A DNA stretch of 64,000 nt, from positions 1 through 64,000 of the forward strand of contig REEN01000029.1 in the NCBI GenBank assembly GCA_007695015.1. Direction: 5' to 3'. A program made the position numbers and the translations under genes. Positions within the stretch are counted from its first letter, which is position 1. Each line of letters starts with the position of its first letter. A model generated the notes under the pieces. The model searched no databases and had not been told where the DNA came from. It saw only the letters and a program-made list of their open reading frames with translations. Shown piece by piece: positions 1-57,869 of this stretch. The stretch comes from Marinilabiliales bacterium. Lineage in GTDB: Bacteria; Bacteroidota; Bacteroidia; Bacteroidales; PUMT01.

Positions 1-1798
1 ACAGGTAGTGTGGTACGCAGCCGCCCGACGGGCCGCCTATCTGCACCGCCTTGAATTGCTTGTCGCCTGCAATGCCGCCGCCGATATCCTCCACTATCTC
101 CCTGATGGTAATTCCCATCGGCACCTCTATCAGCCCCCCCCGCCTTATCTTGCCGGCGAGGGCGAATACTTTGGTTCCCCTGCTTTCGGGAGTGCCTATT
201 GATGCAAACTTTTTCCCGCCCTGGTCCAGTATGTATGGCACCATGGCAAAAGTCTCGGTGTTGTTGATCAGTGTCGGCTTGCCCCACAATCCCTTCTCGG
301 CTGGGAACGGCGGCCTGATCCGCGGGAATCCCCTCTTGCCCTCTATCGATTCAATGAGAGCTGTCTCTTCTCCGCACACAAATGCACCGGCGCCCTCCTT
401 GATCCTGATGCTGAAACTGAAGCCGCTGTTGAGGATATTATCTCCCAGAAGTCCTTTGGCATGGCACATCCCGATTGCCTGCCTGACCCGTTTGACGGCC
501 AGGGGATATTCGGCCCTGATATAGAATATGCCTTCGGATGTCCCCACGGCCTTTGCCGCGATTATCATCCCCTCAATTATCCTGAAGGGGTATGATTCAA
601 GCAACATCCTGTCCATGAACGCCCCCGGGTCGCCCTCATCGCCGTTGCATATGAGTATCTTGCCTTCTCCCGGCTGGGAAGCGGCCACTTTCCATTTTTC
701 ACCTGTAGGGAACCCCGCGCCGCCCATTCCGCGCAGTCCGCTCTCAACAATCTCATTTATCACTTCACCAGGCTCCATGTCAAGCGCCCGTTTGAGTCCC
801 CCAAACCCGCCGCGGTCAATATAGTCGTCAAGATCCAGCGGGTCGAGCACACCCCTGTGCTCGGTGGCTATCGGTATCTGGTTGCCAAGGAAGGAGGCCA
901 CGTGATTTTCCCGCACGTCTAACGAGTAGCGTTCAATACCTTCCCAGTCCTCGTCAGTCTGTATGGTCTCGGCAATACGGGTAATCCCGTTCCTTATCCG
1001 CGTCAGCAATCCGGGAGGTGAAAAATGCGACCTCACGATCGATTTAACATCTGCCGGCGACACCCTGGCGTACAGCCTGGACTGTTCAGTGCCGCCGTTG
1101 CCTGTAACAACTTCGAGCAAAGGTACCTGGTGGCACATGCCCACGCAGCCGACCTGCTTGATGTTCACGTTTATCCGGTCGCGTGATACCGATTCTTCAA
1201 CGGCATCTTTTATGTCGCTGCTGCCGCTTGCAACGCAGCAGGAACCGAGTCCGACCCTGATCTCTCCCAGTATCTCCCCGCCCGGCAGGATGATACCCCT
1301 CTTTTTCTTTTGCTTACCGTCGCGGCTCAGGAAATCCTTCAGCACGCCTGCTGACAGGTTGGCAGAAACATGCCCATAGGTTGTGTCGTCAATCTGCACA
1401 ACCGGCGCCAGTGTGCAGCAGCCCAGGCATGCCACCTTTTCGAGGGTGAAGAGCCTCTTGTCGTCGGTTGACCGTCCCGGTGCCAGCTTCATCTCCCTGG
1501 CCATGGCATCGTGCACCAGCATGGCTCCTTTTACGTGGCAGGCCGTTCCCGTGCAGACTTTGACAATATGTTTGCCTGCAGGCTCAAATCTGAACTGGGT
1601 GTAAAAGCTTGCAACGCCCGTAATTTCCGCCGGTGTTATGCTGGTTGTATCGCAAACCCTTTTCAGCGCTTCCCGCGGAAGGTAGTTGTACCTGTTTTGG
1701 ATAGCCTGCAGAACCGGTATTACGGCGCTCTTGTCCTTCCCCGAAAGGGAGGTTATCTCATCAACATCTTTATGTATCCTGCTCAACTGCGTATCCAT
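1..1798 (-). CDS. NuoE-NuoF fusion flavoprotein (HndC/HydB-like), truncated at window edge
   Basis: Likely electron-entry subunit of an NAD(P)H-linked complex (bifurcating hydrogenase, NADH:ferredoxin oxidoreductase or complex I-like). The first 599 residues are visible and the C-terminus lies outside the window. Residues 1-160 are a NuoE-type thioredoxin-fold [2Fe-2S] domain (C82, C87, C124, C127/C128). Residues 170-260 are a second thioredoxin-like [2Fe-2S] domain (GLGSCCVASGS, VGCVGMC), as seen at the N-terminus of HndC/HydB proteins. From about residue 290 comes the 51-kDa NuoF part, with the FMN loop GLRGMGGAGFPTG and the NADH-side motif GAGAFVCGEETALI. The usual SLBB and 4Fe-4S region would follow off-window. 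NuoE and NuoF are normally separate, so the fusion is notable. Start is ATG at 1798, 16 nt downstream of the propeller gene's stop, suggesting co-transcription. A catalytic partner (NuoG- or HydA-like) would be expected to the left. Confidence 0.9.
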   Translation of the reverse strand, partial: MDTQLSRIHKDVDEITSLSGKDKSAVIPVLQAIQNRYNYLPREALKRVCDTTSITPAEITGVASFYTQFRFEPAGKHIVKVCTGTACHVKGAMLVHDAMAREMKLAPGRSTDDKRLFTLEKVACLGCCTLAPVVQIDDTTYGHVSANLSAGVLKDFLSRDGKQKKKRGIILPGGEILGEIRVGLGSCCVASGSSDIKDAVEESVSRDRINVNIKQVGCVGMCHQVPLLEVVTGNGGTEQSRLYARVSPADVKSIVRSHFSPPGLLTRIRNGITRIAETIQTDEDWEGIERYSLDVRENHVASFLGNQIPIATEHRGVLDPLDLDDYIDRGGFGGLKRALDMEPGEVINEIVESGLRGMGGAGFPTGEKWKVAASQPGEGKILICNGDEGDPGAFMDRMLLESYPFRIIEGMIIAAKAVGTSEGIFYIRAEYPLAVKRVRQAIGMCHAKGLLGDNILNSGFSFSIRIKEGAGAFVCGEETALIESIEGKRGFPRIRPPFPAEKGLWGKPTLINNTETFAMVPYILDQGGKKFASIGTPESRGTKVFALAGKIRRGGLIEVPMGITIREIVEDIGGGIAGDKQFKAVQIGGPSGGCVPHYL

Positions 1799-1814: not shown

Positions 1815-3665
1815 TCAGTTTCCTATGCAGTATAGATGATCTTCACCCCTTATGTATATCCTGCCGTCGGCAAAGGCGGGAGTTGTATACACCTCTTCGC
1901 CGAGGGAGTTCTGCGCAAGGAGGTTTGGCTCCCCGCCCGTTTCAAATATGTAGGTGTTGCCGCTGATATCGGTAACGTAGAGCCTGTTTCCGGCAACCAC
2001 TGGTGATGAGTAGAAAATGTTATCGGTATCGTATTCCCACAGGGTTTCACCGGTCTGTGCATCCAGGCAGGCAACCACTGCATAGGTTGTTGCTATGAAA
2101 ACGTATCCGTTGGCGTAGACCGGACTTGCCACTTCGGGCAGGTAGTAGTTGTCCTCCCACACAACATTCCCCGACGCGGGGTCGATTGCCACCATCGTTG
2201 CATATTCGTTGGCAGCAAAGACAAGTCCCCCACCATACGCAGGCGAAGGTCCGACTTCGCCTGCCATGGCGCTTACCGACCACAGCTCCCTGCCTGTTTC
2301 AATGTCGTATCCGGCTACTATGGGGTTCCCTTTGACCACGAGCTGGTAGCTGCCGTCAACATTGGCCAGGATGGGGGAGGCCCAGGATACATGGGAGTCC
2401 CTGGTAATGTCCCATATTGTCTCGCCTGTAAGCACGTTGAGGCACAGTATCCTGCCCTGGTCAAGGTCGTCATACTGCACAAACAGCTTTTCGCCACGGG
2501 AGATGAGCGATGAGGAGTGCCCGTAGTGGTTGTCGGGAACGCCCAGGTTTCTCGCCCACAGTCGGTTACCCTCCATGTCGAGTGCTATTATGTCGCCTGT
2601 GCCGAAAATGGCATATACGCCAATTCCGTCGGTGGTGGCCGACGGCGCACCCAGTCCGGTATCGGGAGTAGTTCTTGGCGGTGTGGCCGGTGACCCGGGT
2701 ATATTATCGGCCGAAGCTTCCCACAGCAGGTCGCCGGTGTGCCTGTCGAAGCAGAAAACCTTTCTCTCGTCTGCATCGGCTCCGGTTATAAACAGCCTGT
2801 CGCCCCAGATCACCGGCGAGCTGAAGGCGTGGAGCGGGATGGGCACCTTCCAGAGGATGTTGCTGCCCGATTCGCCATCCCACTCCACCGGCAGGTTATC
2901 GTGGTAGACCACCCCGTTACTCCATGGCCCCCTGATAGCATTATGGTTGTTCCTGATGGCGGTCTCGCCGGGGAAGGCCGGAGCGGCGGGGCTTACCGGG
3001 GTTACTTCCGGCGCGGCGTGTTCAGCCGTAGCTTCGCCGGGTTCTTCGCCGGGTTCTGTAACCCGGTCTTCATCTTCGGTTGCAGTATCGTCAGGGAAGG
3101 GGACTGGTGCGGGCCTGGGTTCGGGATCGGTTATTGTAATTCGTTCAACCTGATCTTCGACCTCTTCGGAAATGGGTGCACCGGCCAGGTATCTTTCGAC
3201 GGGGTCGGAGACGGTAAATGTCGCCACCAGCGCTATTGCCACCAGGATGCCGGTGCCGGCAAGTATCCACCTGCGTGAAAGCGCCCTGCCCGCGATATCA
3301 TCGGTCTCTTCCTCATCTTCCGGTTTTTCTATCCTGGCAATAAGGGAGTAGTAGACCCTCAGGGCCACTACCATTATTATTGAGGCGAACAGAAGAAGAT
3401 ACCCTCCGGTGCGCACCTGCCACAGGCTTGTAAAGTATGCCTTTCTTGCCAGCAGGTCGAACTGCCTGATCTCCTGCTTGAGCTGCTCGTTGCCGGGCTC
3501 CATCCTGAGCCGCTGCACCAGCGTTTCCATTACCTCGCTTTCAAGCGGGTCGGCTGAACGCATCTGCAGGTAGTTGAGAAGCAGCAGGAGGCTTATGACA
3601 AGGCAAAATGCCCCTGCCACCGTGGCTGTCTGTTTTGCAATCTTTATTTTGTCGCTGATGTTCAT
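1815..3665 (-). CDS. PQQ-like beta-propeller protein with three N-terminal membrane segments
   Basis: A 616-aa membrane-anchored propeller. Hydrophobic segments lie at about residues 15-34, 86-105 and 132-151. An acidic and proline-rich linker (about 165-235) follows, then a propeller made of repeated blades with DxxTGxxLW/ETxW signatures of the PQQ-like WD40 superfamily (BamB-like, quinoprotein-like). The propeller should sit in the periplasm. No vicinal Cys pair or other PQQ-dehydrogenase signature is visible, so catalytic use of PQQ is not supported; a sensing, scaffold or electron-partner role is possible. It is the gene nearest the NuoE-NuoF fusion (16 nt gap) and lies 67 nt downstream of the NapH-like gene. 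Family assignment is firm; function is unknown. Confidence 0.85.
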   Translation of the reverse strand: MNISDKIKIAKQTATVAGAFCLVISLLLLLNYLQMRSADPLESEVMETLVQRLRMEPGNEQLKQEIRQFDLLARKAYFTSLWQVRTGGYLLLFASIIMVVALRVYYSLIARIEKPEDEEETDDIAGRALSRRWILAGTGILVAIALVATFTVSDPVERYLAGAPISEEVEDQVERITITDPEPRPAPVPFPDDTATEDEDRVTEPGEEPGEATAEHAAPEVTPVSPAAPAFPGETAIRNNHNAIRGPWSNGVVYHDNLPVEWDGESGSNILWKVPIPLHAFSSPVIWGDRLFITGADADERKVFCFDRHTGDLLWEASADNIPGSPATPPRTTPDTGLGAPSATTDGIGVYAIFGTGDIIALDMEGNRLWARNLGVPDNHYGHSSSLISRGEKLFVQYDDLDQGRILCLNVLTGETIWDITRDSHVSWASPILANVDGSYQLVVKGNPIVAGYDIETGRELWSVSAMAGEVGPSPAYGGGLVFAANEYATMVAIDPASGNVVWEDNYYLPEVASPVYANGYVFIATTYAVVACLDAQTGETLWEYDTDNIFYSSPVVAGNRLYVTDISGNTYIFETGGEPNLLAQNSLGEEVYTTPAFADGRIYIRGEDHLYCIGN

Positions 3666-3732: not shown

Positions 3733-5079
3733 TCATTTCTGCACCGGGCAATACTTCATGCAGCGTCCGCAGCTGTAGCAGTCGCCCCTGTTTGGTTCAT
3801 AGTCTGTCCGGCGCCTGACAATATATTGCGAGATCAGGAACAGACCCGCCACCAGTCCGATAAATACCCCCGTAAACCATGCTCCAGTATAAAATGATGC
3901 TTGTATTTCACCTGCTGATTCAACCAGCTCGTCAACGGAGCGGTCAGACCCGAGAAAGGTCTGTACGTCGAGATTGTCACGGTCATCCATAACCTCAGGG
4001 TTATCTATAAGGAGGTGTGCAAGATATACATCGGGATGGGCCTTTGCCAGGAAAACGTGAGATGACGACAGCGCAAATCCCCCGATCAGCATAAGCAGCG
4101 GTATAATTGCCGCATATAGCAGAAACTTCCCTGTACGCCCCTTTATGTCCTGTACCAGCTTGTCGGGGGTCGGTTTGTCAATTGCACCAAAGGGGCATGA
4201 ATCGGCGCAAAGTTTACACTGTATGCACTGGTTGGGGGTGATCGAAAGGTGGCGCTTTGAGAACATGGATGTGACCTTGAGCAATGCGCCGTAGGGACAT
4301 ACAAACCGGCAGTAGGGCCTTGCCACGAACATACCGGTGAGCAGAAACGAGATGCCAAGGACGATAAGGTGGAATTCGGCGCCCATCCTGAATATTCCTA
4401 TGAAGGGGTCGTAGCGGCAGATGATGAAATCGGTGCCGGTGGCAGCGTAAAGCACTGCAAGTGCAAGGTAGACAAACGGGAATAAGCCAAGTGATTTCTG
4501 AATCCATACCGGCACCTTCACCGGCCTGACTATCACCAGGTCCTGTATAACTCCAAGGGGGCAGGCTGAAGCACAGAACACCCTCCCGAATGAAAGGCTG
4601 AAGATCAGCGGCAGCATGAAGAAGGCAATCACGGTATAGGAAACCATGTATGCCGGATCGGACAGAGACAGAACCATGTTCTGTACCGAGCCGACCGAGC
4701 AGATACACCCTTCTCTCCAGAAGCCGAAATAGAGAAGCGCTCCGACAGAGAGCCACAGGATCCATTGCCTGGAGCGCTTTTTGATTACCAGCCATGAGGT
4801 TATAATCAGAAAACCCAGAAGCACGATCACGTCGCCATATTCGAGGGTGAGTGCCCGGGGTTCGGGCGTTGTTGCTTCGGGTAACTCATAACCCGATTCA
4901 AATTCAGGCGCCGGAAAACGTTGCTGTGAAAATGTTTCTAACGGTAATGTTGTCATCACAAGCAGCAGGAGAGGCAATATGGTGGTTGAGATCTTCAATT
5001 TATACTGATTATTATTTAGATTTTTCTGTTTTCCGGACTGATGAACTGGTTTTTTCGTGAGATTTTCAAACATTTTCAA
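3733..5079 (-). CDS. NapH/NosR-like polyferredoxin membrane protein
   Basis: A 448-aa integral membrane iron-sulfur protein, probably passing electrons between menaquinol and periplasmic or cytoplasmic partners. After an N-terminal hydrophobic stretch (about 33-48) there are several membrane spans (about 83-99, 106-120, 145-163, 198-215, 237-252, 319-338, 395-412). Two CxxxCP motifs (C169/C173 and C257/C261), characteristic of NapH/NosR/MauN proteins, flank membrane segments. Two CxxCxxCxxxCP ferredoxin motifs follow (C285-C295 and C434-C444); the second forms the extreme C-terminus. An extra Cys pair sits at residues 125-127. The preceding gene encodes a NapG-like ferredoxin, so together they look like a NapGH/MauMN-type quinol dehydrogenase module, though no Nap, Nos or Mau catalytic gene is in the window. 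The annotated ATG gives a long charged N-terminus; a shorter start is possible. Confidence 0.85.
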   Translation of the reverse strand: MKMFENLTKKPVHQSGKQKNLNNNQYKLKISTTILPLLLLVMTTLPLETFSQQRFPAPEFESGYELPEATTPEPRALTLEYGDVIVLLGFLIITSWLVIKKRSRQWILWLSVGALLYFGFWREGCICSVGSVQNMVLSLSDPAYMVSYTVIAFFMLPLIFSLSFGRVFCASACPLGVIQDLVIVRPVKVPVWIQKSLGLFPFVYLALAVLYAATGTDFIICRYDPFIGIFRMGAEFHLIVLGISFLLTGMFVARPYCRFVCPYGALLKVTSMFSKRHLSITPNQCIQCKLCADSCPFGAIDKPTPDKLVQDIKGRTGKFLLYAAIIPLLMLIGGFALSSSHVFLAKAHPDVYLAHLLIDNPEVMDDRDNLDVQTFLGSDRSVDELVESAGEIQASFYTGAWFTGVFIGLVAGLFLISQYIVRRRTDYEPNRGDCYSCGRCMKYCPVQK

Positions 5080-5106
5080 GTTTTCAGGCCTGATTGAGAA
5101 ATATTG

Positions 5107-5685
5107 TCAGGTTTCTCCGTCCCCGGCGGTGAAATCGCCTTTCATCAGGTAGGGGTCCGAACCCTTAACCCTTTTTATGGCATCGGAGGGGCACACCCTT
5201 GCTATGGCGCACTCATTGCAGTTAACGCATAGATGGTGCATGATCTGGAGGTGCAGCGACCCGTTGCCGAATGCGGAGCAGCCCTCTGCACATTTGGCGC
5301 ATCCGATACAGAGACTCTCGTTTATCTTATACTCATAATAGGGTTCTTCGATGAATTTCCTTTCTATTGCAGCGGTCGGACAAAGCTGGTTTTCGGCTGC
5401 CGTGCTGCGGTCGGAATGGCCCGGGATCAGGTATCCGCCGCAAAGGTCGCAGTAACCGCACAGTTCATATGCATGCACACACTTGACCGCCGAGGGGTTC
5501 AGCACGCAGTGGGTTGCGCACCTCCCGCACCAGGAACACTTGAAGGGATCAATCTGCCAGACCCACTGGTCGGCGGTGGACTTCCTGAAAGCCAGTCCCC
5601 CGATCCCCCCGAGCGCGAGTACCATGCCGAACCGTGCACTGCTGCTAATGAATTCCCTCCGGCTTTTCGTCTTCTTTCTCTCCAT
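5107..5685 (-). CDS. NapG/MauM-like Tat-exported ferredoxin with four 4Fe-4S motifs
   Basis: A 192-aa exported polyferredoxin. The N-terminus KSRREFISSS followed by a hydrophobic stretch to about residue 33 is a twin-arginine signal, so the folded Fe-S protein is delivered to the periplasmic face. Four cysteine clusters are readable: C50/53/56/60, C69/76/79/82 with C102, C126/129/132/136 and C153/156/159/165. The length and four-cluster layout match NapG/MauM rather than simple two-cluster ferredoxins. It lies 27 nt upstream of the NapH-like gene and 12 nt downstream of the small Tat peptide gene, so the three are almost certainly co-expressed. Expected role: accept electrons from the NapH-like quinol-oxidising subunit and hand them to an unknown periplasmic acceptor, or the reverse. 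The acceptor is not identifiable from sequence. Confidence 0.87.
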   Translation of the reverse strand: MERKKTKSRREFISSSARFGMVLALGGIGGLAFRKSTADQWVWQIDPFKCSWCGRCATHCVLNPSAVKCVHAYELCGYCDLCGGYLIPGHSDRSTAAENQLCPTAAIERKFIEEPYYEYKINESLCIGCAKCAEGCSAFGNGSLHLQIMHHLCVNCNECAIARVCPSDAIKRVKGSDPYLMKGDFTAGDGET

Positions 5686-5697
5686 GGTTTATGAAAT

Positions 5698-5919
5698 TTA
5701 TGAGTTGAGGTCCATTTCGGCTGACCTGGCTTCTTCTGCTTCTTCCAGGTTACACCCCCGAAGCCGGTTGCAGTCTCTGCAGGATATGTGTGGCGGACAA
5801 GCTTTTTCCGATGCCGGCCGGGCCTTTTTCAGGCTTGCTGCAGCAATCACCCCAAACGCAGCATAAAGTGCATACCTGCCTGCAGTTGTCAGAAATTCTC
5901 TTCGTTGCATTTTGCTCAT
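5698..5919 (-). CDS. small Tat-signal peptide with four conserved-looking cysteines
   Basis: A 73-aa protein of unknown function. Residues 5-30 form a clear twin-arginine signal (QRREFL then a hydrophobic run). The mature part would be only about 40 residues and contains C41, C47, C50 and C56 in a C-x5-C-x2-C-x5-C pattern, followed by an acidic tail. Its start codon overlaps the stop of the upstream NHL-like gene by 4 nt, and it ends 12 nt before the NapG-like gene, so translational coupling is likely. Export in folded form plus four closely spaced Cys suggests a metal or Fe-S cofactor, but the spacing fits neither a standard ferredoxin nor HiPIP. Coupling to both neighbours makes it very likely a real gene; its function is open. 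Confidence 0.75.
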   Translation of the reverse strand: MSKMQRREFLTTAGRYALYAAFGVIAAASLKKARPASEKACPPHISCRDCNRLRGCNLEEAEEARSAEMDLNS

Positions 5920-6878
5920 ATTGGTTCGAATATTCTTATCATGTTCCTGTCAAAATCCAGGGCAAGCACGTTGCCGTTATCATCGACTGCCACCGCGGGC
6001 GCCCTTGTCCCCTCCCTGAACAGTTCTGAAGGCGCTACCACCGATTCAACTTCCCCCGTACCTATTATCACCTTGATCCTGATGATTCCTTTTTCACTGG
6101 TAACGAACCTGCCGTCGGGCAGAAATGTGAAATGAACCGGATTGCAGCATCCGCTGAAACCGTCGATACCGAATGAGCTCCTCTGGATGTATGATCTCAG
6201 CCTTCCTGACGCGGTGTAGTTCTGAAGGGAATGAATTCCGGGATTGGTTATCCACAATTCGTCTTCTGAATTTACCGCGAGAGTGAAATGTGCACCTGGC
6301 ACAATGAAGCCATGCACATCTGATACCCCAGAATCACCCCTGAACTCACCAGTCTGTTCAAGTTTGCGGTTAAAGATGAGCACTCGCCGCCCGGAGGCAT
6401 CGGCAGCATATATATCATCGCCCAGGATTGCCAGTGATGTGATATTGCTTTCTGCCGGGAGAGGTTCCGACTTTGCAACGGTTTCTCCATCACTGTTAAG
6501 AACGGCAAGCCGATTGCCCATTCCCACTACGATCCATCCCTCTTCAGCCACCGCCAGGCATGTTGGTATGGCCGGGAGAGTTCTCCTTAATATCCGGCTC
6601 CAGTCACTTCCAATCACCTGCAGCTCATTTTGTGAGGCCAGGTAAATTTTGCCCGAGGCATATGTCATTGCGCGGGGATCTTCACTGTCAAGTTCCACTT
6701 GCCGCGCTTCCCTCCAGCGGATCAGCTCCTGGTCGACCGACCTGAACTCCTCAACATCGTAGGCAAAAGGGTTTGCCGGCCTCCTGCCCGGGAGGGTGGA
6801 TCTGTGCTCGACAATTATCACCGCTATGATGGCGGCTGCCGAAATTACAACTATGGAAATGACTGCCCATTTTCGCAT
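5916..6878 (-). CDS. membrane-anchored NHL-like beta-propeller protein
   Basis: A 320-aa protein with one N-terminal membrane anchor (residues 4-23, VISIVVISAAAIIAVIIV), so the remainder faces the periplasm. The body reads as NHL/YncE-type propeller blades: repeated hydrophobic strands with patterns such as GDDIYAADASGRRVLIFN, SEDELWITNPG and VAVDDNGNVLALDFDRN. No catalytic motif is evident. The gene lies 5 nt downstream of the 478-aa PQQ-like propeller gene, and its stop overlaps the start of the small Tat peptide gene by 4 nt, placing it firmly in the redox operon. It may be a docking or sensing component. Confidence in the fold is moderate to high; the partner is unknown. Confidence 0.8.
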   Translation of the reverse strand: MRKWAVISIVVISAAAIIAVIIVEHRSTLPGRRPANPFAYDVEEFRSVDQELIRWREARQVELDSEDPRAMTYASGKIYLASQNELQVIGSDWSRILRRTLPAIPTCLAVAEEGWIVVGMGNRLAVLNSDGETVAKSEPLPAESNITSLAILGDDIYAADASGRRVLIFNRKLEQTGEFRGDSGVSDVHGFIVPGAHFTLAVNSEDELWITNPGIHSLQNYTASGRLRSYIQRSSFGIDGFSGCCNPVHFTFLPDGRFVTSEKGIIRIKVIIGTGEVESVVAPSELFREGTRAPAVAVDDNGNVLALDFDRNMIRIFEPI

Positions 6879-6883
6879 GATCT

Positions 6884-8320
6884 TTATCTTTTGAGGTCAA
6901 TGCATATCATTGTATGGTCGTCTCTCAATAACATATAGCCGTCGGCTATTGCCAGCGGAGCCCAGGCATCGTGTCCGTCTTCTATCAGCCTCATGCTGTC
7001 AAGCTGCCTGAATCCCTGCAAACTCTTCTCAATTATGTAGAGTGTGCCATCATCATCCAGCAGGTAGAATTTGTCATCTGCAAGAATGAAGGGTCCCAGT
7101 CCAAATCTTGCTGTCGAACCGCTGGTCCACACGAAGGAGCTTATATCGTCCGGATCGACGCAAACGAACTGATTTCTCATTGCCCTGGCATCCTTTGGCA
7201 GCACTCCGAAGAGATGTCCGTCAGCGAATACCGGTGTCTGTTGTTCACTCGACAGGCCCTCTCCCGGCCTGTATGTTTCAATTATTTCAGGCTCAAGGGT
7301 GCCGTTTCGGTTGTGAAGCTGCAGCATCATACTGCCCGCTCCGTATCCTGCTGTAAGGAAAATCCTGCCGTCGGGAAGGCATACAGGTGAGGCGGCCAGC
7401 ACCCGGTGGTTCCATTCCGGCACTTCCCAGAGCACCTCACCAGCCCGGGGTCCCTCGGCGGCAACCCCTATGGCGCCGCCTACGGCACTGTAAACATACA
7501 TTTTTATCCCCTCATAAATGAACGGGATGATGGATGAATGTGACATCTCCCAACCGTGCGGATTGGGTGTTTCCCAGAGAATCTCTCCGGTAGCCGCGTC
7601 TACTCCTATCATAAGCGCGTCTCCCCCCGGGGCAATTACTGCCACACCATCGTCGAGGAGCGGACACTGTCCCGTATACCATAACGGTATTTCGGCGTTC
7701 CATTCCATTTCGAGGTCTATACCCCAGAGAAGGTCGCCCGAAAGCCTGTCCACACACATTACGTGTCCGCGCGGACCGATTGTGAGGATATATTCCTCAG
7801 ATACGGCAGGGACCGTTCGCGACATGCCGTGGTTCCTGCGGATATGCACATTGTACCATCTTCTCCACAATTCCTCACCGGTTTCGAGCGAAAAAACCCT
7901 CAGCATATCGGCCCTCTGATCCTCATCATAATCGAGCAGGTAGACAAGTCCCTCATATATTGCCGGACCGGCATGACCCTCGCCCAGATCGACTGACCAC
8001 AGTATATCTGTGCCACCCTGCGAAAAATTGTCGATAAGGGGCACAGGGTTGCGGTATATGTTGTCAAAGTCCTCACCCCTGAACCTCGGCCAGCTCTCTC
8101 CACCAACGGGTACGGGGGGTCTCATCTCCTCAAAGTGGGCTCCTATAACGATCATCTCTTCGACTCCGCCTTCACTTCCTGTGTACCCGTCAGCACCGGG
8201 AAGCGACGGAGCGAGAGTTGCCCAGGGGTTATAGATGATCCACCAGGCAACCGCCAGAAGTCCCCCGAAAAAAACAATTACCGGAAGATAGTTTAAATAT
8301 TTATATGCTAATTCCCGCAT
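6884..8320 (-). CDS. membrane-anchored PQQ-like beta-propeller protein
   Basis: A 478-aa protein with a single N-terminal membrane segment (about residues 11-30, YLPVIVFFGGLLAVAWWIIY). Blades with WSVDLGEGHAGPAIYEG, RLSGDLLWGIDL and DAATGEILWETPN-type motifs identify the PQQ-like/BamB superfamily. The conserved entry WPRFRGEDFDNIY matches the WRGP-type opening of the smaller secreted propellers nearby. It begins the tightly packed run ending at the left edge: gaps to the following genes are 5 nt, a 4-nt overlap, 12, 27, 67 and 16 nt. A 69-nt gap separates it from the upstream 417-aa propeller gene. No PQQ ligand signature can be assigned by eye. Confidence 0.85.
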   Translation of the reverse strand: MRELAYKYLNYLPVIVFFGGLLAVAWWIIYNPWATLAPSLPGADGYTGSEGGVEEMIVIGAHFEEMRPPVPVGGESWPRFRGEDFDNIYRNPVPLIDNFSQGGTDILWSVDLGEGHAGPAIYEGLVYLLDYDEDQRADMLRVFSLETGEELWRRWYNVHIRRNHGMSRTVPAVSEEYILTIGPRGHVMCVDRLSGDLLWGIDLEMEWNAEIPLWYTGQCPLLDDGVAVIAPGGDALMIGVDAATGEILWETPNPHGWEMSHSSIIPFIYEGIKMYVYSAVGGAIGVAAEGPRAGEVLWEVPEWNHRVLAASPVCLPDGRIFLTAGYGAGSMMLQLHNRNGTLEPEIIETYRPGEGLSSEQQTPVFADGHLFGVLPKDARAMRNQFVCVDPDDISSFVWTSGSTARFGLGPFILADDKFYLLDDDGTLYIIEKSLQGFRQLDSMRLIEDGHDAWAPLAIADGYMLLRDDHTMICIDLKR

Positions 8321-8389: not shown

Positions 8390-9643
8390 TCAATTCCTTA
8401 TGCTGTATGCTCTCAGCATCGGTCCGTGTCTAATATAAAGAATTCCGTCATTTATTACCGGGTGTGCCCAGTGCGGGCCTTCTCCTCCGGTTACCCGGAA
8501 CTCGCTTACAACATCGAAACTCCGGCGGTTTGGTTTTACCAGTCCCACATTCCCCCTGCGTTCTTCGTAACTATATAACATGGTTCCGTCGGTAATTATT
8601 GATCCTTTTGTGTTCCATGACTCGTTGTAAAGAGTTTCACCAGTATCCCAGTCCACTGCCACCCAGTTTCCCCGGTTGTTGCTTATCCAGTTGGAGCCGT
8701 AAATAACCCCGTCAAGAAGTACAAATCCCCCGTGATGAGTGCCGTGGTCGTCATTACGCCATACGAGGGAAACATCAGTTGCATCATTGTTCAGTTCAAG
8801 CATGAAGGAGCCCTGTCTATAACCGTTGGAGAAAAAGAGACGCCCGTTGCTGAACAGGGGCGTATTGGTAACAATACTTTCTCCTATTCTCCTCCCCCAG
8901 TCGTCGAAGGTCCATTCAATATCACCGGTTTCCGGATCAACTCCTATCACATTATCTCCTGTCATGGCAATGATCTGCCTTTTTCCGTTATGGTTTATCA
9001 GAAGCGGGGACACATAGCCGTAGTGATCTCCCAGTGGCGGACTCATCCATACCGTTTCGCCGGTTTCTGCATCCAGTGCAACCATCGTGGTCTTGTCACC
9101 GCCCGGAGTGTAGATCACTTTATTATCAAATACCAGCGGTGATTCAGCCGTTCCCCACCTGCCTGTCTCCCTTTCGAACAATTCTCCCCCTTCTACATGC
9201 CATAATATATCTCCGTTAGCGATCTCAATGCAAACTATCTCTCCCTCTCCGCTGATCACCCAGGCTCTGTCATCCATAATAGTTGGGGTTGTGCGTGTTT
9301 CGGGATAAGTTGCATCCCAGGGTGAGCCGTATTCAAGTTCATAGATCTTTTCTCCGTTGAGCGTGTATGCCGAGAAAATCTCCCTGTCGCCTCCCTGGTT
9401 CATCCCTGTAATATACAGGCGGTCGCCTGCGATCACGGGGCTGGAGTATCCCCTTCCTGCATCTGATGTTTCCCATAGCATATCCGGCCCTTCAGTCGGC
9501 CAGGATTTCAGCAGTTCGCTTTCCGGATATAACCCATTCCGGTATGGGCCCCGCCAGCCATTTTGAGACTGTGCGGCCAGGGGTTCGGTGATTGTTAATG
9601 CGCCCAGGATAAGCAGGCAGATAAATGCGAAATGAAGTTTCAT
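8390..9643 (-). CDS. secreted PQQ-like beta-propeller protein
   Basis: A 417-aa protein with a Sec signal peptide (about residues 1-24, ending AAQSQ), so the mature protein is periplasmic or exported. It opens with NGWRGPYRNGLY and continues with blades carrying DAETGETVWMSP, DPETGDIEWTFDDWG and DWDTGETLYNESW motifs, typical of the PQQ-like WD40 superfamily. It resembles the two tandem propellers just upstream but is clearly more diverged. A 208-nt AT-rich gap to the upstream propeller leaves room for its own promoter. No catalytic residues were recognised; the protein could bind a ligand or a redox partner. Confidence 0.83.
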   Translation of the reverse strand: MKLHFAFICLLILGALTITEPLAAQSQNGWRGPYRNGLYPESELLKSWPTEGPDMLWETSDAGRGYSSPVIAGDRLYITGMNQGGDREIFSAYTLNGEKIYELEYGSPWDATYPETRTTPTIMDDRAWVISGEGEIVCIEIANGDILWHVEGGELFERETGRWGTAESPLVFDNKVIYTPGGDKTTMVALDAETGETVWMSPPLGDHYGYVSPLLINHNGKRQIIAMTGDNVIGVDPETGDIEWTFDDWGRRIGESIVTNTPLFSNGRLFFSNGYRQGSFMLELNNDATDVSLVWRNDDHGTHHGGFVLLDGVIYGSNWISNNRGNWVAVDWDTGETLYNESWNTKGSIITDGTMLYSYEERRGNVGLVKPNRRSFDVVSEFRVTGGEGPHWAHPVINDGILYIRHGPMLRAYSIRN

Positions 9644-9851: not shown

Positions 9852-11066
9852 TCATCTCCCGATATCGAATGCCATCAGGGCATTGCCGCGCCTGACATAA
9901 AGCACGCCGTTGTCGATCACCAGGTGGGCCCAGTGCTGCCCTGACCCCAGGGTTATACCGGTCTGTCCCCTGATAATAAAACCGTCAGGCCCGGGCTCAA
10001 CAAGGGCCAGCTCGCCTCTGTCGGAGTAGCAGTACAGCCGTCCGTCGGCCCATATTACGGTTCCCTTGGCTATGTCGCGCGACCGGTAGATTGTCTCGCC
10101 CGTTTCCCAGTCCACTTTTTCCCAGAACCTGTTGTTCTGGCCTGATCCGTAGATAAAGCCATCTACCAGCACCGCACCGCCCATCTGGTTGTCAAGGTTA
10201 TTGGTCCACTCAACGCTTACTGCGTTGGCCACTGAATTGATGTTAAGCTTAACCCCTCCCTGGCCGTAACCACTGAATGCAAAGATACTGCCTTCGTGGT
10301 ATATCGGGGTGTTGGGGTGTACGTCCCATCTGTTGTCGTGACGGTGCGACCACATCAGCCTGCCGGTATCGGCATTAAGTGCCACGATATGGTCCTTCAT
10401 ATGTGTTATAAGCAGGCGCCTCCCGTAATGGTCGACCAGCAGCGGCGAGCAGTAGGCCGATACTTCGCCCGTGCCCTGGCTAGACCATATGATCTCACCA
10501 TTATGGCGGTTGAGGGCAACAATATTGTGCTTTCTGCCACCCGGGGAACAGTATATCCTGTCGCCGTCTATAAGCAGGTTCTCCGTCAGCCCCCACCGTA
10601 TGTTCCTTCCATCAAGATCATTGAAGAGGTCGAGCTGCCATATGGTCCTGCCTGTGCCGGCATCCATGCAGACCAGGACACCGTTACTGCTCACTATGTA
10701 TATTTTGTCATCCACCACTGCAGGAGTGTTCCGGCTGCCCGGATAGCCTTCGCCGTGAAATTCCGGCCCGTATGCAAACCTGTTTAAAAGATCGCCGTTC
10801 ATGGAAAGTTTGTACACATAACCTGTTCCATCCTCTATCCCGGTAACGTATATGTTACCGTCTGCCACCACAGGTGAAGAAAATCCTGCCCCAAGCTGTT
10901 CAAAGGCCCAGAGCATCTGCGGTCCACCGGCCGGCCATTGCTGCAACAACCCGGTCTCGTGATAGATGCCCTGCCTTTCGGGGCCTCTCCAGTTCTGAAC
11001 TGTCTGTGCAGCAATACCTGCCGTGCAGGCGATCAACAAAGTGGTCAATAATGCAATTCTTCTCAT
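9852..11066 (-). CDS. secreted PQQ-like beta-propeller protein, tandem copy 2
   Basis: A 404-aa protein from the chosen ATG at 11066 (MRRIALLTTLL), which begins directly with a Sec signal peptide. An in-frame ATG at 11093 would add nine hydrophilic residues and overlap the upstream gene, so I prefer the shorter form. The mature protein begins QTVQNWRGPERQGIYHE and has repeated blade motifs (MDAGTGRTIWQL, NADTGRLMWSH, DWETGETIYRSRD). It is strikingly similar to the gene immediately upstream along the whole length, so the pair arose by tandem duplication. Expected location is the periplasm or cell surface. Function is unknown; the PQQ-like fold alone does not establish PQQ binding. Confidence 0.83.
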   Translation of the reverse strand: MRRIALLTTLLIACTAGIAAQTVQNWRGPERQGIYHETGLLQQWPAGGPQMLWAFEQLGAGFSSPVVADGNIYVTGIEDGTGYVYKLSMNGDLLNRFAYGPEFHGEGYPGSRNTPAVVDDKIYIVSSNGVLVCMDAGTGRTIWQLDLFNDLDGRNIRWGLTENLLIDGDRIYCSPGGRKHNIVALNRHNGEIIWSSQGTGEVSAYCSPLLVDHYGRRLLITHMKDHIVALNADTGRLMWSHRHDNRWDVHPNTPIYHEGSIFAFSGYGQGGVKLNINSVANAVSVEWTNNLDNQMGGAVLVDGFIYGSGQNNRFWEKVDWETGETIYRSRDIAKGTVIWADGRLYCYSDRGELALVEPGPDGFIIRGQTGITLGSGQHWAHLVIDNGVLYVRRGNALMAFDIGR

Positions 11067-11085
11067 ATAGTCCTGATTTATTTGG

Positions 11086-12306
11086 TTACTCACTGATGTT
11101 ATATGCCATCAGAGCATTTCCGTGCCTGACGTAAAGAATTCCGTTGTCAATCACAAGGTGGGCCCAGTGTTGTGCCGAACCCAGTTTTATACTGGTCTGG
11201 CCCCTGATGATGAATCCCTCAGGTGTGGGCTCCATGATGGCCAGTTCGCCCCTCTCGGTATAGCAGTAAAGTCGGCCGTCGGCCCAAATCACCGTTCCTT
11301 TGTCGATATCGCGTGAACGGTAAACCGTTTCGCCTGTCTCCCAGTCGACGCAGAACCAGAACCTGTTGCGGTCGCCCGATCCGTATATATACCCGTCAAC
11401 AAGGACCGTGCCTCCTAACTGGTTGTCAAGATCGTCGTTGAACCACAACTCGGTCACCCCGTCTCCGGCCATGTTCAGCCTGAGCTTTACTCCCCCCATT
11501 CCATATCCGCTGAAAGCGTAGATGCTGCCTTCGTGGTAGATCGGTGTATTGGGGTGGATGTTCCTGAAGTTGGCATGAGGATGCGTCCACAGTGTTTCGC
11601 CGGTTGTAGCATCCACACCAACTATATTCCTCTGCATCATTGTTACCAGTATTCTTCGCCCGTTGTGGTTGATCAGAAGCGGCGAACAATAAGAAGACAA
11701 TCCTCCGGTCCCGGGGCTTGCCCATATCACCTCACCGTTATGCCTGTTGAGAGCCACAACATTATACTTGTTGCCTCCCGGGGTGCAGAAGAGTGTATCA
11801 CCCGAGATCAGGAGGTTTTCGGTAAAGCCCCATCTTATGTTGCTGCCGTCTAAATCGTTGAACAGGTCAATTTGCCAGACTGTGTTGCCGCTTGTATGAT
11901 CCATGCATGCCAGCATACCGTGGCCGGTGACTATATATGCATGGTTGCCAACGATTGCCGGAGTACTGCGGCTTCCGGGGTAGCTCCGGTAGTACTCTTC
12001 GCCGTAAGGGAATTTTCTTTCAAGTGCTCCATTCATTGACAAAACATACAGGTAGCCCCTCCTCTCTTCCATTCCTGTTATGAATATCATTCCTCCTCTG
12101 ATAACCGGAGAGGTAAAACCCTCACCAAGCTGTTCATACGCCCAAACCATTTCCGGCCCTGCTGCCGGCCACTCCTGAAGAAGACCTTTTTCATGGTAGA
12201 TACCCATCCTTTCAGGACCGCGCCAATTCTGAACCACCTGGGCATTCAAACAGGTCGGTGAAAGCAGTAAAACTATTTTCAGGGTGAATAATAACCTCAT
12301 AGGCAT
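11086..12306 (-). CDS. secreted PQQ-like beta-propeller protein, tandem copy 1
   Basis: A 406-aa protein with a signal peptide (residues 1-22, LLFTLKIVLLLSPTCLNAQ). The mature part begins VVQNWRGPERMGIYHE and shows the same blade sequence as the following gene, including LDLDNQ-like and GQTxxKLGSxQHWAHLVIDNG segments shared almost word for word. ATG codons at 12306 and 12300 are both possible; the choice changes only two residues. It is the first gene of the minus-strand propeller block. A 7-of-8 match to the TAnnTTTG -7 box lies at 12328-12335 (TATATTTA on the minus strand), so transcription may start here. Role unknown. Confidence 0.83.
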   Translation of the reverse strand: MPMRLLFTLKIVLLLSPTCLNAQVVQNWRGPERMGIYHEKGLLQEWPAAGPEMVWAYEQLGEGFTSPVIRGGMIFITGMEERRGYLYVLSMNGALERKFPYGEEYYRSYPGSRSTPAIVGNHAYIVTGHGMLACMDHTSGNTVWQIDLFNDLDGSNIRWGFTENLLISGDTLFCTPGGNKYNVVALNRHNGEVIWASPGTGGLSSYCSPLLINHNGRRILVTMMQRNIVGVDATTGETLWTHPHANFRNIHPNTPIYHEGSIYAFSGYGMGGVKLRLNMAGDGVTELWFNDDLDNQLGGTVLVDGYIYGSGDRNRFWFCVDWETGETVYRSRDIDKGTVIWADGRLYCYTERGELAIMEPTPEGFIIRGQTSIKLGSAQHWAHLVIDNGILYVRHGNALMAYNISE

Positions 12307-14906: not shown

Positions 14907-15674
14907 ATGAGATCATACACTTTTACCAGGTTGAAAAAAACAGCCGGTGTAACCGCATTACTTATTGCTGTAACAGTTATCGGTTCCGCATTTGCTGAAA
15001 ATGAGGAGGCCCGTGGGTGGAAGGAGCTGTTTAACGGAAAGGACTTCACAGGCTGGATAGTGCCCGAAGGAGATAACGGACACTGGCAGGTCATTGATGG
15101 GGTTATTGATTATGATGCCCTTAGCGAGGCGCCGGGCGACAAGAATCTTTGGACCAGGGATTCTTATAGTGATTTTGTTCTGAAGATGGACTGGCGGATA
15201 AAGGAGACCCCGTTCATAAACCACAATGTACCCATTATAAGGCCTGACGGGACCCACCAGCTCAATGCCGACGGCGAGGTTATCAGGATATCGGTGCCGG
15301 ACAGTGATTCAGGGGTCTACCTTAGAGGTACATCGAAGGCCCAGGTCAATATCTGGACCTGGCCGATAGGGTCGGGCGAGGTTTACGGCTACAGGATGGA
15401 CCAAAATATGCCTCCTGAGGTAAGGGCCGGAGTGACACCCTCGATGATGGCCGATAACCATATAGGTGAGTGGAACACATTTGAGATCACAATGAAGGGT
15501 GACCGGCTCACGGTTGTACTGAACGGCCATACGGTAATCGAAAATGCACAGTTACCCGGTGTGCCTGAAAGCGGTCCCATAGCACTGCAGCATCATGGCC
15601 GCATGGTTGACGGAGAATGGGTTAGTTCTCCCTCACTCGTGCAGTTCCGCAACATTTCAATAAAAGAGTTGTAG
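14907..15674 (+). CDS. DUF1080 (3-keto-disaccharide hydrolase-like) secreted protein
   Basis: A 255-aa exported protein. A signal peptide covers about residues 1-31. The mature protein opens with GWKELFNGKDFTGWIVPEGDNGHWQVIDGVI, the standard entry of DUF1080 (concanavalin-like jelly roll), and ends with VQFRNISIKEL, also typical. Several DUF1080 members cleave 3-keto-glycosides or bind glycans. The window also contains a Tat-exported Gfo/Idh/MocA oxidoreductase about 43 kb away, a family linked to 3-keto sugar chemistry, but the two genes are not adjacent. It lies just upstream of the DUF5916 gene on the same strand (29 nt to the chosen start). Confidence 0.85.
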   Translation: MRSYTFTRLKKTAGVTALLIAVTVIGSAFAENEEARGWKELFNGKDFTGWIVPEGDNGHWQVIDGVIDYDALSEAPGDKNLWTRDSYSDFVLKMDWRIKETPFINHNVPIIRPDGTHQLNADGEVIRISVPDSDSGVYLRGTSKAQVNIWTWPIGSGEVYGYRMDQNMPPEVRAGVTPSMMADNHIGEWNTFEITMKGDRLTVVLNGHTVIENAQLPGVPESGPIALQHHGRMVDGEWVSSPSLVQFRNISIKEL

Positions 15675-56245: not shown

Positions 56246-56351
56246 TAATATCATTAGGATTTTTGAAAAATATGCGTATTATTGCTTCTGTTAAAAAATC
56301 TGACTTTTTATTTACCGGGTCAGTAACCCGTATTTCAATATTATTAGTTTG

Positions 56352-57869
56352 ATGAGCAAGAGCAGATCTACCAGGCGCGGGCGCAGGTACATAATAATAC
56401 TGCCCGTAATACTTACCGCATTGTTCCTTTTTATGGGTGACCGTATAGTCCGTTACACCTCCACAAACGAATTCTGTTATGCCTGCCACAGCCATCCGCA
56501 TGCTGAGGAGTCCTGGAGGAGGTCATCCCACTACGATAACCGTTCAGGGATATATGTCCAGTGTGCGGAGTGCCACCTTCCGCCTCCCGGCAACCTGAAA
56601 TACCTTCTTGCCAAGGCAAAGCACGGAGCCCATGATGTTTACGGCTGGCTGTTCAAGGATCCGGAGTCGATCAACTGGGAAGCAAAGCGGACAGTTGAAA
56701 AGGCTGTCAGGTACACATATGACGAATCGTGTATCAAGTGCCACCAGAATCTTTTTCCCATGCAGCTTTCGCAGGACGGACAGCAGGCACATCTTTACTA
56801 TCAGCAGCATGAGGACGATCTGAGCTGCCTCAACTGCCACCTCCATACCGGTCACTACTCCGATATTGTGCAGGAGGGTATTCAGTTCGGGGTTGCAGAT
56901 GAAGTTGCGAGGGAAGTATTCACCGAACCGGCCCAGGTTGAAGATTTTGTGAACTTTACCGAAAAGATTCCGGGAACTTCTGTCAGCTTTGAGATGGCAG
57001 CCATCCCCGGCGGGACCTTTAAAATGGGAAGCCCTCCCGACGAATCTTACAGGAGGGATGACGAGGGGCCCGTAAGGGATGTAGAGGTAAGTTCTTTTTT
57101 TATGGGTCGTGCCCAGGTGAGCTGGGATGAGTTTCTTGCCTTTTACAATGCGACTGCAGCTGAGGGCAGGCAGGATAATATTTACGCCACCAACCTCGGA
57201 GAGGTTGATGCCATATCGGGACCCACTCCCCCGTGGGGACTGCCCGACCAGGGATGGGGGATGGGGTCCAGGCCTGCAATAACAATGACATGGTATGCAG
57301 CAGAAACCTACTGCAGGTGGCTCTCCGCAGTGACCGGCAGAACCTACAGGTTGCCGACAGAGGCCGAATGGGAGTATGCTGCACGTGGCGGAACTGAAGG
57401 TCCCTATTTCTTTGAGGGAGACCCCAGGAGGTTTACCCGTGAAAGTCTGCGCAACAGGATCTTTGGTCCCGACACTGCAGTGATCAGCTCCTATGTTATC
57501 TACAGGGAGAACAGTGAAGCACGCACCCAGCCTCCGGGATCTGTCAGGCCCAATCCATTCGGACTTGAGCATATGCTGGGAAATGTGTTTGAGTTTACGG
57601 GGGACTGGTATGCGCCTGATGCCTATTCATTGTACCCGTCAGGGACCGTAGTGGATCCGGCAGGACCTGCATCCGGCACCGAAAGGGTTATCAGGGGCGG
57701 TTCTTTCAACTCCGATGCAGCTGATGTAAGGGTAGCCGCAAGGAGTCACACCCGGCATGCGGCATGGCAGATGACCGATCCGCAGATACCAAAAAGTGAG
57801 TGGTGGTATACCGATACCCGTGAGGTCGGCTTCAGGGTGGTCATGGAATGGGAGACGGATGACCAATAA
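56352..57869 (+). CDS. NapC/NrfH-type tetraheme cytochrome c fused to a SUMF1-like domain
   Basis: A 505-aa inner-membrane-anchored protein; ATG 56352 preferred over TTG 56349. One N-terminal anchor (about 13-29) is followed by four c-type heme motifs: CYACH 42-46, CAECH 71-75, CIKCH 127-131, CLNCH 159-163, with the NrfH/NapC context TSTNEFCYACH and VQCAECHLPPPG. Residues about 215-505 are a formylglycine-generating-enzyme/SUMF1 fold (AAIPGGTFKMGSPPDE, YRLPTEAEWEYAARGG, MLGNVFEFTGDWY, VIRGGSFNSD). The catalytic Cys expected after RGGSW is absent (DAADVRVAAR instead), so it is probably not a sulfatase activator. It likely moves electrons from menaquinol to a periplasmic partner held by the SUMF1 part. 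Confidence 0.9.
   Translation: MSKSRSTRRGRRYIIILPVILTALFLFMGDRIVRYTSTNEFCYACHSHPHAEESWRRSSHYDNRSGIYVQCAECHLPPPGNLKYLLAKAKHGAHDVYGWLFKDPESINWEAKRTVEKAVRYTYDESCIKCHQNLFPMQLSQDGQQAHLYYQQHEDDLSCLNCHLHTGHYSDIVQEGIQFGVADEVAREVFTEPAQVEDFVNFTEKIPGTSVSFEMAAIPGGTFKMGSPPDESYRRDDEGPVRDVEVSSFFMGRAQVSWDEFLAFYNATAAEGRQDNIYATNLGEVDAISGPTPPWGLPDQGWGMGSRPAITMTWYAAETYCRWLSAVTGRTYRLPTEAEWEYAARGGTEGPYFFEGDPRRFTRESLRNRIFGPDTAVISSYVIYRENSEARTQPPGSVRPNPFGLEHMLGNVFEFTGDWYAPDAYSLYPSGTVVDPAGPASGTERVIRGGSFNSDAADVRVAARSHTRHAAWQMTDPQIPKSEWWYTDTREVGFRVVMEWETDDQ

What the first reader, a model, noticed from the sequence alone, without database searches (positions are those of the whole stretch)
3733..8320. NapGH-like electron relay embedded in an operon of beta-propeller proteins
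A NapG/MauM-like Tat ferredoxin with four Fe-S motifs and a NapH/NosR-like membrane protein are flanked in a tight operon by a membrane propeller, an NHL-like propeller, a small Tat peptide and, beyond, a three-TM propeller and a NuoE-NuoF fusion. Seen: motifs, order, gaps mostly under 30 nt. Known: NapGH/MauMN move quinol electrons to periplasmic oxidoreductases. Inferred: propellers are partners, scaffolds or sensors for an unknown periplasmic redox process. No nitrate, nitrous oxide or methylamine enzyme is present, so the partner is missing or new.
Basis: partly seen in the sequence, partly recalled or inferred. Interest (0 to 1): 0.8.

Follow-up and report, generated by a model that had tools for sequence, protein, structure and literature searches.

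The report
Bifurcating enzyme wired across the membrane
A conserved gene cluster in anaerobic Bacteroidales, Planctomycetota and Hydrogenedentota seems to join an NADH/ferredoxin electron-bifurcating enzyme to an iron-sulfur 'wire' through the membrane that ends in a group of periplasmic beta-propeller proteins; this combination was not found described, and its outer substrate is unknown.

Summary
The five genes at 3733-8320 are the middle of an operon that runs off the contig. The next contig overlaps by 55 bp and continues NuoEF-FAD protein-propeller-GT4. The core order propeller478 / CCNP-NHL / small Tat Cys peptide / NapG / NapH / 3-TM propeller / NuoEF / FAD protein recurs in three phyla. 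A propeller gene adjoins NapG in 53 of 55 loci, so the association is not incidental. NuoEF is a fused BfuC-BfuB electron-bifurcating core, with the diagnostic B2 ligands including the His reported only in bifurcating enzymes. The FAD protein is a BfuA relative that lost its NADP-binding domain. NapH keeps 15 invariant Cys: 12 predicted cytosolic, and 3 predicted periplasmic that E. coli NapH lacks. Sixteen of 30 cluster-bearing genomes, this one included, lack both known menaquinone pathways, so quinol feeding is unlikely as the general role. Best reading: a Bfu-type complex whose third substrate lies in the periplasm, reached through NapH/NapG. Direction and outer substrate are unproved; I favour electron export. 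Quinone independence is inferred, and this genome still encodes NapC/NrfH-type proteins.

The parts
11086..12306 (-). secreted PQQ_2-type beta-propeller (406 aa), accessory; copy number varies 0-5 between loci
   Evidence: Pfam PQQ_2 E=1e-19; order
9852..11093 (-). secreted PQQ_2-type beta-propeller (413 aa), accessory paralogue
   Evidence: PQQ_2 E=1e-23
8390..9643 (-). secreted PQQ_2-type beta-propeller (417 aa), accessory paralogue
   Evidence: PQQ_2 E=4e-21; no vicinal CC or CxxCH in 39 homologues of this group
6884..8320 (-). membrane-anchored propeller (478 aa, one N-terminal TM), core
   Evidence: PQQ_2 E=4e-20; one TM; conserved upstream of NHL across phyla
5916..6878 (-). membrane-anchored NHL propeller (320 aa) with invariant FxGCCNP vicinal-Cys motif (C244-C245), core
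   Evidence: CCNP in 46 of 46; AF2 model pLDDT 89.5, NHL fold; alignment A2
5698..5919 (-). small Tat-type peptide (73 aa) with four Cys, C41-x5-C47-x2-C50-x5-C56, possibly one Fe-S cluster
   Evidence: pattern in 40 of 40 homologues including Planctomycetota; no Pfam family
5107..5685 (-). NapG/MauM-like Tat polyferredoxin (192 aa), 16 invariant Cys, about four [4Fe-4S]
   Evidence: 16 Cys invariant in 55 of 55
3733..5079 (-). NapH/NosR-like membrane Fe-S protein (448 aa): twin CX3CP and two C4 motifs predicted cytosolic; C125, C127 and C221 predicted on the periplasmic side
   Evidence: 15 Cys invariant in 50 of 50; topology; C125/C127/C221 absent from E. coli NapH
1815..3665 (-). three-TM membrane propeller (616 aa), core
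   Evidence: TM prediction; PQQ_2 E=4e-35; order
2..1798 (-). BfuC-BfuB fusion (NuoE-NuoF type, cut by the contig end; 791 aa in a close relative): FMN/NADH domain plus Bfu Fe-S clusters
   Evidence: remainder on G000 contig C96, 55-bp overlap, where the BfuA-like FAD protein, a propeller, GT4 and an ABC ATPase follow

Best explanation
A membrane-linked electron-bifurcating/confurcating (Bfu-type) complex whose third substrate lies in the periplasm. In the cytosol, the fused BfuC-BfuB core exchanges electrons with NAD(H) and ferredoxin. The BfuA-like protein, which has lost its NADP-binding domain, passes them to the cytosolic Fe-S motifs of NapH. NapH carries them across the membrane through Cys sites on both faces to NapG, then to the small Tat peptide and the CCNP-NHL propeller, which the two membrane-anchored propellers hold in place. 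I favour export: NADH plus reduced ferredoxin from fermentation are discharged to a periplasmic acceptor, without quinol. Shown by sequence: parts, order, invariant ligands, loss of the NADP domain, absence of known quinone pathways in many hosts. Inferred: that these proteins form one complex, the membrane route, the direction, and the acceptor (unknown).
For: Core order conserved across Bacteroidales, Planctomycetota and Hydrogenedentota, with correlated divergence of the seven core proteins (r 0.63-0.91, 32 loci; partly expected from shared ancestry). Bfu core: C1, B1, B3 and B4 ligands essentially invariant in 43 full-length proteins; B2 His plus three Cys invariant and the fifth ligand mostly Cys, sometimes Thr, mapping exactly on A. 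mobile HydB C438/C476/C531/C536/H525. Operon NuoEFs form one clade apart from the other BfuBs of the same genomes (support 0.95). The FAD protein aligns to StnC/NfnA/9bov_A up to residue ~286 and resumes at ~426-448, so the NADP domain is missing; in L036 the FAD domain is gone too. NapH: 15 of 15 Cys invariant, three on the predicted periplasmic face and absent from E. coli NapH. Sixteen of 30 hosts lack MenD and Mqn; 7 of these also lack NapC/NrfH proteins.
Against: No complex, cofactor or activity has been measured. The periplasmic Cys triad lacks an obvious fourth ligand, and the NapH model is only moderate (pLDDT 68.5) with no PDB match. The B5 site is incomplete in some members. About half of the hosts do have a menaquinone pathway, and this genome encodes two NapC/NrfH-family proteins, so scavenged quinone could serve. 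One genome (G551) has NapG-NapH next to no propeller, and no clear NuoEF of this type.
Confidence: 0.55

Rival explanations
1. Same machine run inward. A periplasmic donor, perhaps a sugar or polysaccharide product oxidised by a propeller enzyme, delivers electrons through NapG/NapH to BfuABC, which bifurcates them to NAD+ and ferredoxin.
For: Bfu enzymes are proposed to be reversible (PMC9304861). Variable numbers of secreted PQQ_2-type propellers (0-5 per locus) could be substrate-specific dehydrogenases. DUF1080 3-keto-disaccharide hydrolases are commoner in cluster-bearing families of the order (5 of 8 against 7 of 36, Fisher p=0.025).
Against: Propellers score far below the PQQ-dehydrogenase cut-offs, with no vicinal CC and no CxxCH in the secreted ones. 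Three of the eight cluster-bearing families have no DUF1080.
Confidence: 0.2
2. Classical NapGH-like quinol dehydrogenase feeding an unlinked periplasmic oxidoreductase; the Bfu genes are neighbours with a separate job.
For: NapH has the twin CX3CP and C4 motifs of the quinol-oxidising NapH family (PMC5928378). About half of the hosts make menaquinone. In G551 NapG-NapH stands away from the rest.
Against: Many hosts, some also without NapC/NrfH proteins, have no known menaquinone pathway. BfuBC and the FAD protein keep the same place in three phyla. NapH scores 47 bits against a family cut-off of 213.
Confidence: 0.13
3. A low-flux envelope maintenance system: NADH-driven reduction of periplasmic cysteines or Fe-S sites through the NHL vicinal Cys pair, serving export or assembly of surface glycoconjugates or lipoproteins (linked GT4, LolD-like ATPase, FtsX permease).
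For: Invariant CCNP pair. The propeller-GT4-ABC-FtsX module is linked in many loci of the two main phyla. The propellers match BamB-type repeats.
Against: The satellite module is often absent or on the other side. Bifurcation would be an elaborate supply for a low-flux thiol reductant.
Confidence: 0.12

Closest known systems
Nfn-Bfu / Stn transhydrogenase (S. ovata StnABC, PDB 8oh5; T. sibiricus type, 9n5u; 9bov)
   Same: BfuBC core with the same cofactor ligands; BfuA N-terminal half with [2Fe-2S], Fer4_20 and FAD fold
   Different: BfuC and BfuB fused; BfuA lacks the NADP domain and the C-terminal NuoG-like half; linked to a membrane relay
Bfu enzymes predicted to be membrane-bound (Mbh-Bfu, Nuo-Bfu; PMC9304861)
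   Same: Bfu core wired to a membrane module
   Different: Those use proton-pumping hydrogenase or complex I modules; here NapH/NapG and propellers. Nap and propeller are not mentioned in the main text of that paper
NapGH / MauMN
   Same: Tat polyferredoxin next to a membrane protein with twin CX3CP and two C4 motifs
   Different: Only about 23% identity to E. coli NapH; extra TM segments and a periplasmic CxC plus Cys; no Mo reductase; donor apparently not quinol in many hosts
Rnf / Nqr
   Same: NADH- or ferredoxin-linked transmembrane electron transfer
   Different: No Rnf subunits in the cluster; a full-length RnfC is encoded elsewhere in the same genome
PQQ dehydrogenases and BamB
   Same: PQQ_2 propeller repeats
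   Different: Far below PQQ-enzyme cut-offs, no vicinal CC in the secreted ones; two of the propellers are membrane-anchored

Membership tests
Bfu electron-bifurcating family | C1 [2Fe-2S] ligands in BfuC | tested here: met
   C87, C92, C129, C133 in 43 of 43
Bfu electron-bifurcating family | B2 [2Fe-2S] site with the His reported only in bifurcating BfuB | tested here: met
   C634, C726, C731, H721 in 42 of 42 alignable; C672 is C in 35, T in 5; equals A. mobile C438/C531/C536/H525/C476
Bfu electron-bifurcating family | B1 plus C-terminal B3 and B4 [4Fe-4S] | tested here: met
   (C657 is G in 3)
Bfu electron-bifurcating family | B5 [2Fe-2S] in the N-terminal thioredoxin-like domain | tested here: inconclusive
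   C193 and C223 42 of 43, C192 36, C227 34; also incomplete in StnB (PMC7483475)
Bfu electron-bifurcating family | coupled NAD(H)/ferredoxin/third-substrate activity | not testable with these tools
Nfn-Bfu (Stn) subtype | NADP(H)-binding domain in BfuA | tested here: not met
   alignment gap of about 140-160 residues against three solved BfuA chains; no second GGG-type nucleotide motif found in the operon FAD proteins
NapGH quinol dehydrogenase | twin CX3CP and two C4 motifs in NapH | tested here: met
NapGH quinol dehydrogenase | score above the curated NapH/MauN model cut-off | tested here: not met
   47.4 against 213 bits
NapGH quinol dehydrogenase | quinone made by the host | tested here: not met
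   16 of 30 hosts, this one included, without MenD/Mqn; uptake cannot be excluded (NapC/NrfH present in some)
NapGH quinol dehydrogenase | linked periplasmic Mo/Cu/TTQ enzyme | tested here: not met
   none among the genes identified next to NapG; not every unassigned neighbour was annotated
PQQ-dependent dehydrogenase (propellers) | curated family score and vicinal disulfide | tested here: not met
   at most 49 against 480 bits; CC in 0 of 39 secreted propellers

The most novel reading that the evidence does not exclude
A previously undescribed class of quinone-independent transmembrane redox enzyme: an electron-bifurcating Bfu core that couples the NADH and ferredoxin pools of fermenting bacteria to a periplasmic substrate through a NapH/NapG Fe-S wire and a propeller assembly, standing beside Rnf, Nqr and complex I as a further such link.
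Probability: 0.35. Interest if true: 0.9.

Novelty: new variant of a known kind. Interest (0 to 1): 0.74.

Why it matters
Eighteen of 57 BfuB clades were left uncharacterised in the family survey (PMC9304861). Whether one of them is this cluster was not tested. If the reading is right, fermenting Bacteroidales and Planctomycetota have a dedicated electron route between NADH/ferredoxin and the periplasm that does not need quinones or cytochromes, which would change how their energy budgets and envelope redox chemistry are modelled. It also gives a testable setting for NapH without quinol and for the very common but unexplained PQQ_2-type propellers.

Tried and rejected
Quinol-fed relay as the general rule: many hosts have no Men/Mqn pathway. 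Rnf variant: Rnf is separate and nearly universal in the order, so uncorrelated. Link to the DUF1080/3-keto-glycan pathway: only a weak association, three cluster-bearing families have none. PQQ dehydrogenase: not supported. c-type cytochrome partner: no CxxCH in the propellers; NapC-family proteins absent from several hosts. NapH fold search: no PDB match. NHL fold search: ordinary NHL propeller only. Broad Bacteroidota sampling: 0 of 395 other genomes, so the cluster is confined to some lineages. An interim note gave 16/60 relatives; the count is 15 of 60 including this genome. In one search the NuoEF ligand table was read one residue off; one search is the corrected count. No paper in the searched library describes the cluster; subscription papers were not searched.

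Full report
What is there. The window begins at the end of a contig, which cuts the NuoE-NuoF gene. Another contig of the same genome, C96, begins with exactly the same 55 bases and continues that gene, followed by an FAD/Fe-S oxidoreductase, a propeller, a GT4 glycosyltransferase and, past a gene on the other strand, an ABC ATPase. The operon therefore spans at least three secreted propellers, membrane propeller, NHL protein, small Tat peptide, NapG, NapH, three-TM propeller, NuoEF, FAD protein, propeller and GT4.

Distribution. NapG homologues with E below 1e-60 occur in 15 of 60 near relatives including this genome, in 0 of 395 other Bacteroidota sampled evenly, and in 32 of 294 Planctomycetota. 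Named relatives include Bacteroidales MAGs, Draconibacterium, Prolixibacteraceae, Sedimentisphaerales and Hydrogenedentota. In six-frame profile searches over 55 non-redundant NapG loci, 53 have propeller genes next to NapG, in one order. The two exceptions, in G551 and G513, still carry the NHL protein elsewhere as a probable lipoprotein (E 4e-96 and 1e-101), while 43 genomes without the cluster have only weak NHL matches (E no better than 2e-14). G513 also keeps a fused NuoEF that falls inside the operon clade. Co-occurrence without linkage argues that these parts work together. Limits: most genomes are draft MAGs, and loci at contig ends show only part of the cluster.

The cytosolic module. 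NuoEF is not complex I. It carries every cluster that defines the Bfu bifurcating core except a variable B5: C1, B1, B3 and B4, and the B2 site whose His is reported only in bifurcating BfuB (PMC9304861). The five B2 residues map exactly onto A. mobile HydB and are conserved in 43 operon proteins. The nearest solved relatives are Nfn-type Bfu enzymes. The next gene resembles the N-terminal half of their BfuA, but the alignment skips the NADP-binding domain and ends before the NuoG-like half. One relative, L036, has also lost the FAD domain. My inference is that the NADP substrate site was lost and the electrons are handed to another partner; NapH is the obvious one in the same operon.

The membrane wire. 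NapH has 15 invariant Cys in 50 homologues. Hydropathy, charge bias and the AlphaFold helices agree on a topology with the twin CX3CP and two C4 motifs in the cytosol and C125, C127 and C221 outside. E. coli NapH has the cytosolic motifs but not these three. The model itself is only moderate and has no structural match, so the intramembrane path is inference. NapG has 16 invariant Cys. The small Tat peptide has a Cys pattern kept in 40 of 40, including Planctomycetota where gene callers could easily miss it. The NHL protein has an invariant CCNP motif in 46 of 46, on a confidently predicted NHL propeller. In L036 the NHL protein itself carries a Tat-like signal and a C-terminal Cys motif, and no separate small Tat gene was found there, consistent with a fusion of the two.

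Quinones. Of 30 cluster-bearing genomes, 6 have MenD above cut-off, 9 have MqnA/D, and 16 have neither, including this genome and a single-contig 3.87-Mb genome. Seven of the 16 also lack NapC/NrfH-family proteins. This makes quinol feeding unlikely as the general mechanism. It does not prove absence of quinones: uptake or unknown pathways are possible, and this genome encodes two NapC/NrfH-family proteins.

Mechanism. Best supported is a Bfu complex with a periplasmic third substrate, probably exporting electrons from NADH and reduced ferredoxin. The reverse direction, a quinol-fed relay and an envelope maintenance role remain open with the probabilities given. The export direction rests on plausibility in fermenting hosts, not on a direct test. 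The outer acceptor is not identified.

Novelty. Both halves are known kinds; their union, and the propeller, NHL and Tat-peptide set, was not found in the papers searched. Full-text search covers open-licence papers only. I therefore file it as a new variant of a known kind, with a substantial chance that it is a distinct class.

Noticed in passing
window 56349-57869 (+): A NapC/NirT-type cytochrome with four CxxCH motifs fused to a formylglycine-generating-enzyme-like domain (PF03264 plus PF03781), followed by a Tat-type Gfo/Idh oxidoreductase at 57918-59255. Matches in frames of similar length occur in most cluster-bearing Bacteroidales.
   Followed up: partly
window 14907-15674 (+): 3-keto-disaccharide hydrolase (PF06439) near the operon; seven matches in the genome and up to 20 in relatives.
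   Followed up: partly
G000 contig C96, 1-7365 (L130): Shares its first 55 bases with the window's first 55 (reverse complement), so it is the next piece of this operon; holds the BfuA-like protein, propeller, GT4, a symporter-like gene on the opposite strand, and an ABC ATPase.
   Followed up: yes
L092 and L090 (Planctomycetota genomes G551 and G513): NapG (and in L092 NapH) outside the propeller cluster, among unrelated genes; NHL protein unlinked elsewhere. A natural dispersal of the operon.
   Followed up: partly
L036:11297-12268 and L036:4185-5234: FAD protein without its FAD domain, and an NHL protein with a Tat-like signal and a C-terminal Cys motif.
   Followed up: partly
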